A stretch of 64,000 nucleotides of DNA from assembly GCF_011397635.1 (NCBI RefSeq), contig NC_064760.1, forward strand, positions 23,881,356-23,945,355, written 5' to 3'. Position 1 is the stretch's first letter, and every line of letters begins with the position of its first letter. A program made the translations under genes and the position numbers. The stretch comes from Epinephelus fuscoguttatus (lineage: Eukaryota > Chordata > Actinopteri > Perciformes > Serranidae). This document shows, one piece after another, positions 3,623 through 34,730 of this stretch. The notes beneath the pieces were generated by a model, which ran no database searches, was not told where the DNA came from, and saw nothing but the letters and a program-made list of their open reading frames with translations.

Positions 3623-3643
3623 TTCAGCACCAAGGACAGAGAC
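3623..3643 (+). promoter_or_regulatory. RE1/NRSE-like site, V1-V2 spacer
   Basis: TTCAGCACC followed by AAGGACAGAGAC agrees with the 21-bp RE1 consensus at 18 positions by eye, including both half-sites. RE1 is bound by REST/NRSF, which silences neuronal genes in non-neural cells. It lies 1053 bp upstream of the V1 start. Confidence 0.6.
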
Positions 3644-4762
3644 ACAAACACAAGCTCCAGCTGAGCTCAAAAGATACAAGTTGATATGCAGATGCTTTGT
3701 TAAAAAGTTTTGGAAAATATATACAAAAACAGAAAAAGATGAACAATGTACTGCCCTTGCAGCACGTAATCTTGTGCGAAGCTAGACAGTCAGTTGCCTT
3801 TCTTGTATTTTACTGTAGTCTTGATTTAATAGGTTAGGTTGTAAAACTGAAACATTACAGCGAAAATTAAAAAAAAAAAATCAGTATACAAGCATCGACT
3901 CATTTATACAAACAGTAAGGTACGTATTACACATATACTATGACCAGATGAATATCACATTTCTGCCAACATTGTGTCAGTATACTGTATACACACAGTT
4001 TGACTGCGAAACTGCGACTTCTGTCATAAATGAACTGCTAAAAGCTACCACTGTAAGCTTAGTGCCACAGAACAACAAAACAGCAAAAGAACTTAATGAT
4101 TTTCCCTATAAATGCATGTGGTTGATGTTTGTGTGCACACTCCTAACAGACAAATAATCTCCAAGGAAGCAGCGTATCAGAAAAACATTTGTCAACAACA
4201 TGAATTCAGCTCCGTCTTTGTCTGACTGTGCAAAACTAAGGAGAGGCTACGCTAGCAAAGTAAACAGAGAAAAGGCAAAGATAGGCTGACGATGCACAGA
4301 TTGGTAAGAGCACTCACACTGGCGATGTTTCTGAAAACCAACCAGAGCGCAGAGCACGCACTCGGACGCTGTTTTCAAAATCCAAGAGAGAACAGCTTGC
4401 TTTTAACCTTTTAAACCAATTTTTAAGAATACAAAACTTAAAATTGACTTCACTAAACCCAACATAAAGAATTCAATAAACATAAGTGTATCGGCATGTG
4501 TCAAAATAACTCATCTGTTAAATCTTGATGCATTACAGCGCTCAATGTACGCAATAAGAAACAAGTAGAATTTATTACTATGTGTTGAAGCTTTTAGTAA
4601 CTTGCAAAGCGAAGTGAATTTACACAGGGTAACTTCAACTCACACCTCACATCGTGTGTAAAGTGGAAAAAAGGAAAGGCAAATACAAATCATAATTGAA
4701 TGAGTAATGGTTGGATCATTAAGGTACATATACATCTAACAACAAGTAACACCAGTTCCTAC

Positions 4763-7083
4763 CTCAGGAGAACCATCGCTATCTCCAAAGGCATCAGCAA
4801 AATCTGATGGACTTTTCCTCAGAGTCTGGTCAGCAGGCAGTGTGTTGTCATTGTAAGATGACACGAACTTAAAGTCACTGGTTCTTGAACCTGTTGTCAG
4901 GTAGGCGTCATAATTGTAAGTGCTGCGTAAAGTTCCTGTGCCGTCAACATCTGCGTAATTAGGAGGGAGATAAGCGCTAGGGATGGCAACTGCTCCATCA
5001 AACAACAGTCTGGGCTTTCTCCTGCGACAAAACCTCACACCCAGGATGATGATGATGAAGGTCAGGAAAAACGTCGACACAGACACCAGCGCGATGATCA
5101 GATAAGACGTCAGTTTGGAATTCTTCTCATCATAAGAAATGTCCTTCAGTTCTGGCACCTCAGCCAAGTTATCAGAAATCAGTAAATACATGGAACAGGT
5201 GGCAGACAGAGAGGGCTGTCCGTTATCTTTCACTGACACAATCAGGTTCTGTTTCATGCTGTCAGACTCGAAATGTCCCACTGTGTCCTGATCTCTCCGC
5301 TGTGGACATAGTGAAAAGGCCCGGATCTGTGGATTTCACTATATCATACGACAGCCAGGCGTTCTGTCCGGAGTCCGCGTCCACCGCGATCACTTTGGAC
5401 ACCAGAGCCTCCGTGTGCAGCTTTGGGGACCAGCTCGGTCATGAAGGTTGCCCTCCGGACCGTACAGTATCTGAGGAGAGTTGTCATTCACATCAGATAT
5501 GAACACACTCACGGTCACGTTGCTGCTCAGCGGAGGAGAACCGTTGTCTCTGCCCATCACGTGGACTTTAAACTCCTCAACTGTTCATAATCAAACGACC
5601 TCACAGCGTGGATCACCCCGTGTCTCCGTTAACAGACACATAGGAGGACACCGGGCACCGTTCACCTCACCAGGTAACAGAGAATAAATCACTGTACCGT
5701 TTTGTCTCCAGTCGGGGTCTCGAGCACTAACGGAACATAAAGTGGAGCCAGGTTTGTTATTTTCACTCACATATGCGCTGTACGACTGTTCCTCAAACAC
5801 AGGTGGGTTGTCGTTGATGTCTGCTACAGATAACTCAACACTTTTAGACGAGGACAGAGGTGGAGAGCCCTCGTCACTGGCAGTGATTGTAATGTTGTAA
5901 TCAGACACTACTTCACGGTCCAGTTGTCCTGTGGTCACCAGAGAATAATAGTTTTTAATAGAAGGAACCAACTTAAAAGGGGCGTTTTGCTGAATGGAGC
6001 AGCGGACCTGTCTGTTATTCTCAGAGTCTCTATCCTGCACGTTAATGATGCCCACCTCTGTACCAGGTGACACATTCTCAGGTATGGGATTCGTCAAGGA
6101 TTTCATATATATAACTGGAGCATTATCATTTACATCAGTGATTTCAATCATCACTTTAGAATCTGATGACAGCCCATAACCATCTTTAGCATCGATGCGC
6201 ATTTCATAGTTAGAGTTACTCTCGAAATCAAGTGGTCCTATGACTCTTAACTCTCCAGTTTTACTGTTCAGTGAGAAAACCTTTTTAGCCCTTTCTGAGA
6301 TGCGGCTAAACTCATATGTCACCTCCATTGACTCCTGGTCTGCATCAAGCACTTACAGTGATAACTACAGTATCTAGGAGAGTTTTCAGGCAGACTGGCT
6401 TTGTAAACGGCCTGGTCAAACACTGGGGCGTTATCATTAGCATCCAGCACAATGACGTGTATATTACAGTTGATCTCTGAGGAGCCACCATCAAAGCAAT
6501 CATTAGCAAAATTTAATCTGTTCTTTTCACGGTCTAGCTCTGTCTAACACCAGCTCGACGTTCAACCGTCACTGTCATCTCTGACAGACAAAACAAAATG
6601 TTCATTATTTTGTAAACTGTACTGTTTTACTGTATTTTGTCCGATGTCAGCGTCGTGTGCTTCGTTGAGACGATATCGAGCTCCTTTGTCGGCCGATTCC
6701 CTTATTTCAAGTTTAATTGTATCCTTTGGAAAAACTGGTGAATTGTCGTTTACATCCTGGATGAGCAGTGAAATACGGTGAGCTCAACTCAGACTAATTC
6801 AATTTAAGCATACGCGAAACCTTCTCCACACAGCTCTCTGTCGATCCTTTCCCTGATGACCAAATTTCCCGTTTTGAGATCAATATCGCAGTAGTGCTGA
6901 TAGCTTTCCTCGGTGTCAATACGGGCTTTACGAGTGGACAATTTACTTCAGCCGAGGTCCTTTTCCAATAACAACAGATCCGTCTCATCTCCTGAACAGA
7001 ATAGCTCAGGTCTCCATTGCGATGTGGACGACGGCAGCAAAGACGCAGAAAAAACTCAGCAACGATTTCCCTTTTTGGTCCAT
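4763..7083 (-). pseudogene. pcdhg: Gamma-type variable exon V2, heavily broken
   Basis: This is the close partner of V3: same start [15 protein letters not shown] region at 7083, same EC1-EC3 blocks, same ending CCTGAG|GTAGGA. It is some 60-70 bases shorter than an intact copy because of many separate small deletions in two blocks. The first is about 5270-5660 (EC6 to late EC5) and the second about 6325-7050 (EC3 back to the signal peptide). The stretch between them, roughly 5690-6320 (EC3/EC4/EC5), is clean and matches the other exons base for base over long runs. The membrane span and tail (4763-5250) are also clean. The losses mostly shorten runs or doublets, such as GAGAG to GAG, CCCCC to CCCC and GGGG to GGG. 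It may be a genuine pseudogene or an uncorrected stretch of assembly; the sequence alone cannot decide. Confidence 0.75.
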
Positions 7084-7221
7084 TGCGTCTCCCGAAAGAA
7101 GACACAGACACGCAAATTCCCCTTGTTAGTGATAAAACTGAAATGTAATGGTAAAACTGACGAACACCGCTCCCACAACAATGGCAGCCCCTGTTGTAAT
7201 GCTTGAATTACTCCTTTTGCA

Positions 7222-7276
7222 GTGGGTGGAGAAATTAAACACCTCATATCTGTAGGCGGGTAGCGACGCCGTGAGC
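7222..7276 (-). promoter_or_regulatory. V2 promoter module (CACCC box and CGCT element)
   Basis: Plus-strand GTGGGTGGAG at 7222-7231 (CTCCACCCAC in the transcribed sense) and AGCGACGCCGTGAGC at 7262-7276 (core CGCT on the minus strand), with starts 40 bp apart. The CGCT element is 179 bp above the V2 start, exactly as in V3. Protocadherin variable-exon promoters are known to carry a conserved element with a CGCT core, which is a CTCF-binding element in mammals. Confidence 0.75.
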
Positions 7277-33613: not shown

Positions 33614-34353
33614 CGTCGGAAAAAATAGGAGCTCACAGCTTGTGCAAATTACTGTATGCCTGCGCAACAAAAAGTCAAATTCCAAAATAGGTCAATATTC
33701 CAACATGCCACAACATCGAACGCCATGAAAATCAGCCGGGGAATGAGGCGATTCTACTGAAAATTAACAACCGATTTTAATGCAGTAACAGTGGGTGGAG
33801 ATGTCGGTGCAAACTGTGTGCTGGCCTACAGCGGCACCATGAGTCGCTTTTTACTCTTTACACCTGCATACAATATTCTCAACAAAGTCTCAAGGCACCA
33901 CATTTTCACCCACTTTAACATGAACTGTGTGCCACATGTAAAACATAAATGCCACAATATATTGTACGAAGATTGTTACAAAAAAGTAGCTTATGAAATG
34001 AGATGTTTATTTTATTGACCAATGTGTGTTTACTTCAAGACAAAAACCTAAATACTAAATAAACGTAAACATTACATTTGCAGACACGCATTATTCATAT
34101 CACAATAAATAAATGTCTGTACACAGTATGGGATAAAAAAAAACAAAAAACTTTTAATTGACTTTAAAATCAAATTACAAACGGAATGTGTTATGGGTTG
34201 CTAAAAAAAAGACTTATCAACTATTTTCACTTAGTCAGAAGGCATAGTCGGAATAAAATGCTGTACCTGTATGCCTATGACTCATTTGAAGTTTTCTTGT
34301 TTTGTTACAAAATATTTCTTCTTAATACATCACTGAACAGACAATTCATTGCA
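33614..34353. other. Sequence upstream of V8
   Basis: Apart from the V8 promoter module (33791-33844) this is AT-rich with no recognisable element. Homology to the other V5-V8 upstream regions fades above the CGCT element, so V8 marks the edge of the tandem duplication. Confidence 0.55.
33791..33844 (-). promoter_or_regulatory. V8 promoter module (CACCC box and CGCT element)
   Basis: GTGGGTGGAG at 33791-33800 and AGCGGCACCATGAGT at 33830-33844, starts 39 bp apart. On the minus strand the latter reads CATGGTGCCGCT, close to the right half of the CTCF consensus. It is 217 bp above the V8 start. Confidence 0.77.
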
Positions 34354-34483
34354 TTATTATTATCAGTAGTAGTAGCTGTAGCAGTAATACTATTATTAGT
34401 TGTTGTTGTAGTAGTATTCATACTATTAGTGGTAGTAGTAGTACTATTAGTAGTTGAAGTAGTAGTAGTAGTAGTAGTTGCTT
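34354..34483. repeat. Imperfect trinucleotide repeat
   Basis: About 130 bp of degenerate TAG/TTA/TTG triplets on the plus strand (GTAGTAGTAG, ATTATTA, TTGTTGTTG). It produces open frames of low complexity on both strands that are not genes. Confidence 0.85.
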
Positions 34484-34709
34484 TTTGTCTACAGTCAGGG
34501 TCCCAAGCAGTCATAGAATGCTAAGTGACACAAGATTTGTTGTGATTAATTGTGATTAATAATTCATACATTCTCTGTGTAAATCAAATGACGATTGCCT
34601 TATGATGGGAAGAGGGATGTGTGGCCAGAAATGGAAAAACCCAGCTGACAATTAGGCAGTAAGACAGAACAACTGCAAAAAACTGTGAGAAAATCACAGA
34701 CCTGACTGT

Positions 34710-34730
34710 TTCAGCACCATGGACAGCGAC
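34710..34730 (+). promoter_or_regulatory. RE1/NRSE site upstream of V8
   Basis: TTCAGCACCATGGACAGCGA followed by C: 19 of 21 RE1 positions by eye, the best of seven. It lies 1097 bp above the V8 start and is the RE1 nearest to the alpha-gamma boundary. Confidence 0.75.

What the first reader, a model, noticed from the sequence alone, without database searches (positions are those of the whole stretch)
3623..34730. RE1/NRSE silencer motif repeated in seven of eight gamma spacers
Seven sites (3623, 7441, 11452, 22334, 26391, 30328, 34710) match the 21-bp REST/NRSF element at 16-19 positions, all in the same orientation, one per spacer. The odds of seven such matches arranged one per unit by chance are very low. 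Some duplicate each other (22334, 26391 and 30328 share flanks), but the sites near V1, V2/V3 and V8 have different flanks, which suggests selection to keep them. It implies REST silencing unit by unit, not only through one enhancer. I recall scattered NRSEs having been reported in vertebrate protocadherin clusters, so the principle may be known while this one-per-spacer layout may not be.
Basis: partly seen in the sequence, partly recalled or inferred. Interest (0 to 1): 0.72.

Follow-up and report, generated by a model that had tools for sequence, protein, structure and literature searches.

The report
REST silencer sites beside protocadherin exons
Seven of eight protocadherin-gamma units in this fish-type gene cluster carry one near-perfect binding site for REST, the repressor that keeps nerve-cell genes off in other cells; the sites look real, but this kind of control of protocadherin clusters, in fish too, was already reported.

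Summary
Seven RE1/NRSE sites lie at the stated coordinates on the + strand (genes on the - strand), matching the published 21-mer at 16-19 positions. They are the window's only matches to the zebrafish core TCAGCACCNNGGACAG with at most one mismatch; chance predicts 0.01-0.035. Each lies upstream of its unit's promoter block, 358-2212 bp before the start codon; V4's spacer has none. Among 16,315 spacer 17-mers, only words overlapping the RE1 recur (2 mismatches or fewer) in three or more of five spacer families; 0 of 3000 permuted motifs reach three units. Between spacer families, only the RE1 and the promoter block align. Within close duplicates the RE1 is no better conserved than its flanks, so selection is inferred from cross-family retention alone. 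Likely mechanism: REST docks at each unit and silences gamma promoters outside neurons; no binding or expression was tested, and no second species could be compared. The principle is known: a review describes NRSEs in fugu, mouse and human Pcdh clusters, in promoters in fugu (PMC3601302, citing Tan et al. 2010). A well-formed member of a known kind.

The parts
3623..3643 (+). RE1/NRSE upstream of V1; 18/21, core perfect
7441..7461 (+). RE1/NRSE upstream of V2; 18/21, core perfect
11452..11472 (+). RE1/NRSE upstream of V3; 18/21, core one mismatch
22334..22354 (+). RE1/NRSE upstream of V5; 17/21, core perfect
26391..26411 (+). RE1/NRSE upstream of V6; 16/21, core one mismatch
30328..30348 (+). 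RE1/NRSE upstream of V7; 16/21, core one mismatch
34710..34730 (+). RE1/NRSE upstream of V8, best match (19/21, core perfect); also the only strong RE1 between the alpha constant exon at 49.8 kb and V8
100..2570 (-). Pcdh-gamma variable exon V1 (3' limit approximate), one internal frameshift
4736..7083 (-). variable exon V2 (limits approximate), heavily frame-broken; start set by homology to V3
8680..11087 (-). variable exon V3 (3' limit approximate), one internal frameshift
12787..15219 (-). variable exon V4, open frame; the unit without a spacer RE1
17695..20122 (-). variable exon V5 (3' limit approximate), one internal frameshift
23178..25609 (-). variable exon V6 (3' limit approximate), two internal frameshifts
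27102..29602 (-). variable exon V7 (3' limit approximate), one internal frameshift
31178..33613 (-). variable exon V8, open frame, cadherin repeats; best solved relative protocadherin gamma B4
2761..2771 (-). promoter conserved block (CSE-like, GGTGTCACTAT) of V1
7262..7270 (-). CSE-like block (GGCGTCGCT) of V2
11266..11274 (-). CSE-like block (GGCGTCGCT) of V3
15447..15457 (-). CSE-like block (AGTGTCGCTGT) of V4
20336..20346 (-). CSE-like block (GGTGTCGCTGT) of V5
25821..25831 (-). CSE-like block (GGTGTCGCTGT) of V6
29814..29824 (-). CSE-like block (GGTGTCGCTGT) of V7
33828..33838 (-). CSE-like block (GGTGCCGCTGT) of V8

Best explanation
The seven sequences are RE1/NRSE elements, docking sites for the zinc-finger repressor REST/NRSF, each carried in the 5' region of one protocadherin-gamma variable-exon unit. 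In non-neural cells and progenitors REST bound there would recruit its corepressors (established REST biology, recalled) and keep the adjacent promoter silent; when REST falls in neurons, promoters become available for CTCF-based enhancer choice. Tandem duplication copied exon, promoter block and RE1 together. V4, without a site, would lean on neighbouring sites. Shown here: sequence, position, statistics, sharing across spacer families. Inferred: binding, repression, selection.
For: Core match with at most one mismatch in 7 of 7 and nowhere else in the window; scores 15-18 of 19 against at most 13 for the best others; one per unit in 7 of 8 units, always upstream of the promoter block; the only 17-mers shared by three or more of five spacer families at 2 mismatches or fewer overlap the RE1 (31 of 31 such words among 16,315); 0 of 3000 permuted motifs reach three units. 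Literature passages: NRSEs in fugu promoters, and NRSE deletion from Pcdh constructs turns neural into ubiquitous expression in Xenopus tadpoles (PMC3601302); REST binds NRSEs of human PCDH alpha and gamma variable exons (PMC8096226); in zebrafish NRSEs restrict transgenes to neural tissue in a REST-dependent way (PMC3529185).
Against: Within V2/V3 and V5/V6/V7 alignments the RE1 is not an island of conservation (7-29% of windows as good or better). Distance to the start codon varies sixfold (358-2212 bp), so no fixed promoter architecture. V4 lacks a site. V2 keeps a perfect core beside a badly frame-broken exon, so presence alone does not prove a working unit. PMC8096226 (section 20) calls human PCDH beta and gamma expression not neural-specific. 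No binding, expression or orthologue data were obtained.
Confidence: 0.85

Rival explanations
1. Passive hitch-hiking: one ancestral RE1 was copied with the duplicating units and persists by recent common descent, without present selection unit by unit.
For: V2/V3 and V5/V6/V7 spacers are homologous over long stretches at about 68-88%, and the RE1 is no better conserved there than flank.
Against: V1, V2/V3, V5-V7 and V8 spacers share nothing but the RE1 and the promoter block at E 1e-3, and RE1 words alone cross three or more families; neutral sequence of that age would have lost the core too.
Confidence: 0.12
2. Dispersed repeat: the sites came in with a transposable element carrying an RE1-like word.
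For: A LINE-like open frame at 36105-36938 (judged by eye) holds a 13 of 19 RE1-like word. That some mammalian RE1s lie in LINEs is recalled.
Against: The 521-bp neighbourhoods of the seven sites find no repeat around the RE1 outside homologous gamma spacers; the one outside match, 46 bp at 43633-43678, lies over 200 bp from the V3 site.
Confidence: 0.02
3. Chance matches to a loose consensus.
For: With three mismatches allowed there is a background: 19 matches, 4.8 expected.
Against: With at most one mismatch 7 are seen and 0.01-0.035 expected; permuted motifs do not reproduce the layout.
Confidence: 0.01

Closest known systems
NRSEs scattered in the fugu protocadherin cluster (Tan et al. 2010, Nucleic Acids Res. 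38:4985; not held, known here through PMC3601302 and recall)
   Same: Canonical NRSEs in the 5' regions of clustered Pcdh genes of a fish, with some genes lacking their own
   Different: There REST binding and reporter effects were tested; here only sequence. A near one-per-unit layout over a run of eight gamma units is what this window adds; how it compares with fugu gene by gene was not checked
REST sites a, b, c inside human PCDH alpha and gamma variable exons, and HS5-1 NRSE (PMC8096226)
   Same: One or more REST sites per variable-exon unit
   Different: In human they are in the coding exons and the alpha enhancer; here they are in the spacers. The exonic words here reach only 12-13 of 19

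Membership tests
Canonical RE1/NRSE | left half-site, 2-bp gap, right half-site, few mismatches to consensus | tested here: met
   7 of 7 with at most one core mismatch; 15-18 of 19
Canonical RE1/NRSE | bound by REST/NRSF | not testable with these tools
   needs EMSA or ChIP
Canonical RE1/NRSE | represses a linked promoter in non-neural cells | not testable with these tools
   needs reporter or deletion assay
NRSE-controlled clustered protocadherin locus | tandem Pcdh variable exons, each with its own promoter | tested here: met
   eight exons with cadherin homology (V4 and V8 in Pfam), best solved relative of V8 Pcdh gamma B4, CSE-like block in 8 of 8
NRSE-controlled clustered protocadherin locus | NRSEs in 5' regions of units | tested here: met
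   7 of 8 units
NRSE-controlled clustered protocadherin locus | sites conserved in orthologous clusters of other fishes | not tested
   no vertebrate collection on hand; own-genome search unanswered

The most novel reading that the evidence does not exclude
In this lineage the duplicating cassette of the gamma cluster is exon plus promoter block plus its own RE1, so that non-neural silencing is encoded unit by unit and is kept more faithfully than any other non-coding word; the strongest site, 34710, sits where mammals keep the alpha-cluster HS5-1 enhancer (between the alpha constant exons and the next cluster) and may serve the alpha genes and gamma V8 alike.
Probability: 0.12. Interest if true: 0.5.

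Novelty: new member of a known kind. Interest (0 to 1): 0.27.

Why it matters
It is a clean natural series (seven units with, one without a site) in which one could test whether REST silences a Pcdh cluster locally, unit by unit, or through a shared enhancer. It also shows that the RE1 is the most widely shared non-coding word between these spacers. It does not change what is known about REST and protocadherins.

Tried and rejected
Compensating exonic site for V4: an RE1-like word lies in the LDAND codons of all eight exons. V4's has the best core match (2 mismatches against 3-4), which suggested compensation for its missing spacer site, but on the full 21-mer V4's word (13 of 19) is no better than those of V5-V8 (13 of 19); rejected as evidence. 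Non-canonical RE1 with other gaps (gaps 0-13, two mismatches allowed): scattered weak matches, no pattern in the spacers, not tested against shuffles. CTCF-like scan with a recalled consensus: two weak places in the window (38360, 41958), neither at a promoter block nor near 34710, so no HS5-1-like pair was recognised. My first automatic CSE assignment for V2 and V3 was wrong and was replaced by the aligned block. At three mismatches the unbiased 17-mer search also returns A-rich words in four families, and one shifted RE1 word reaches V4; I rest on the two-mismatch result. In one search some permuted motifs gave up to 8 hits in total, so the total alone does not discriminate; the number of units does. 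Relatives among viral contigs: 8 pattern matches, none confirmed. Paper searches for a one-per-spacer description in fish found none beyond PMC3601302; Tan et al. 2010 itself is not held, so its own layout figure was not seen.

Full report
What is there. The window holds eight tandem protocadherin variable exons on the - strand (V8 at 33.6 kb to V1 at 2.6 kb, in transcription order), found as open frames, by tblastn with V8 and, for V4 and V8, by Pfam cadherin domains. V8's best solved relative is protocadherin gamma B4, E 7.5e-190. Start codons at 2570, 7083, 11087, 15219, 20122, 25609, 29602 and 33613 were set by homology. With no variable exon detected between 33.7 and 64 kb, V8 is most likely the first gamma exon. 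That the animal is a teleost is inferred from this layout (alpha then gamma without beta, see PMC7811963 passage), not from any named record.

The sites. All seven reported sites exist as described and match the published canonical 21-mer (PMC3529185) at 16-19 of 21 positions. With the zebrafish core (PMC3531662) four are perfect and three have one mismatch; no other place in 64 kb does as well. Expected number 0.01 (100 shuffles) or 0.019-0.035 (Markov). The reported zebrafish count of 1102 such sites over a recalled genome of about 1.4 Gb gives about 0.05 per 64 kb. Scores are split: 15-18 of 19 for the seven, at most 13 for the best others, and exactly seven places in the window reach 15.

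Layout. Each site lies upstream of its unit's promoter block (a CSE-like GGTGTCGCTGT word seen in 8 of 8 promoters; the name CSE is recalled and used in PMC3601302) and 1053, 358, 365, 2212, 782, 726 and 1097 bp before the start codons of V1, V2, V3, V5, V6, V7 and V8. In V5 the distance is large because about 1.4 kb (roughly 20608-22020) does not align to V6 or V7 and has no second copy in the window. V4's spacer has the promoter block but no RE1 (best 12 of 19).

Independence and selection. Spacers fall into five families: V1; V2 and V3; V4; V5, V6 and V7; V8. Between families, at E 1e-3, the only alignable stretches are the promoter block (V5, V6, V7 with V8) and the RE1 (V1, V5, V7 with V8); other cross-family pairs give nothing. 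An unbiased search of 16,315 spacer 17-mers at two mismatches or fewer found 31 words in three or more families, all overlapping the RE1. Of 16,275 spacer 21-mers only three reach seven units with 15 of 19, all RE1. Of 3000 permuted RE1 motifs two reach two units and none three. Against this, within the close duplicates the RE1 is unremarkable: 7-29% of windows of equal size are conserved as well or better. So selection is a fair inference from old, cross-family retention, not from recent divergence, and it needs orthologues to be shown.

Mechanism. REST silencing of neural genes is established. PMC3601302 (passages) reports NRSEs in fugu, mouse and human Pcdh clusters, in promoters in fugu, and that deleting NRSEs from Pcdh constructs spreads expression in Xenopus tadpoles. 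PMC8096226 (passages and section 20) shows REST binding to sites in human PCDH alpha and gamma variable exons and that the HS5-1 site restrains enhancer-promoter contacts; it also calls beta and gamma expression not neural-specific, which counts against a strict neural lock on gamma in mammals. PMC3529185 (passages) shows REST-dependent NRSE silencing in zebrafish. The likely reading is local REST docking per unit. V4 would rely on neighbours, as recalled from Tan et al. 2010.

Novelty. The principle, including fish and promoter position, is in print; the searches that looked for more found reviews and citing papers, and the primary paper is not held. What this window adds is a regular, nearly one-per-unit run and the finding that the RE1 is the most widely shared non-coding word there. 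Interest is low to moderate.

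Noticed in passing
window 100-29602 (V1, V2, V3, V5, V6, V7): Six of eight variable exons carry at least one frame-breaking indel against V8 inside otherwise near-identical sequence; V2 has 23 deletions of that kind in the alignment. Pseudogenes or assembly errors cannot be told apart here.
   Followed up: partly
variable exons V1-V8: Sharp step in paralogue identity: first 1200 aligned columns 68-83%, next 1200 columns 95-99% (mean pairwise), like the regional gene conversion reported for fugu Pcdh (PMC1852091 passages).
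   Followed up: partly
window 49777-49989 and 61611-61754, - strand: Two alpha-type constant-region pieces upstream of the gamma exons; a CTTCTCCTT run at 49711-49758 adjoins the first and may encode its lysine-rich end.
   Followed up: partly
window 34710 within 33614-49776: The strongest RE1 lies between the alpha constant exons and the first gamma exon, a position comparable to the mammalian HS5-1 enhancer; no CTCF-like pair was seen beside it.
   Followed up: partly
window 1876, 6437, 10393, 14516, 19434, 24921, 28914, 32925: A weak RE1-like word recurs in the LDAND codons of every variable exon (2-4 core mismatches), perhaps related to the exonic REST sites of mammals.
   Followed up: partly
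window 36105-36938, - strand: LINE-like open frame by eye (no Pfam match) holding a 13 of 19 RE1-like word at 36303.
   Followed up: no
window 20608-22020: About 1.4 kb in the V5 spacer without counterpart in V6 or V7 and without another copy in the window.
   Followed up: no
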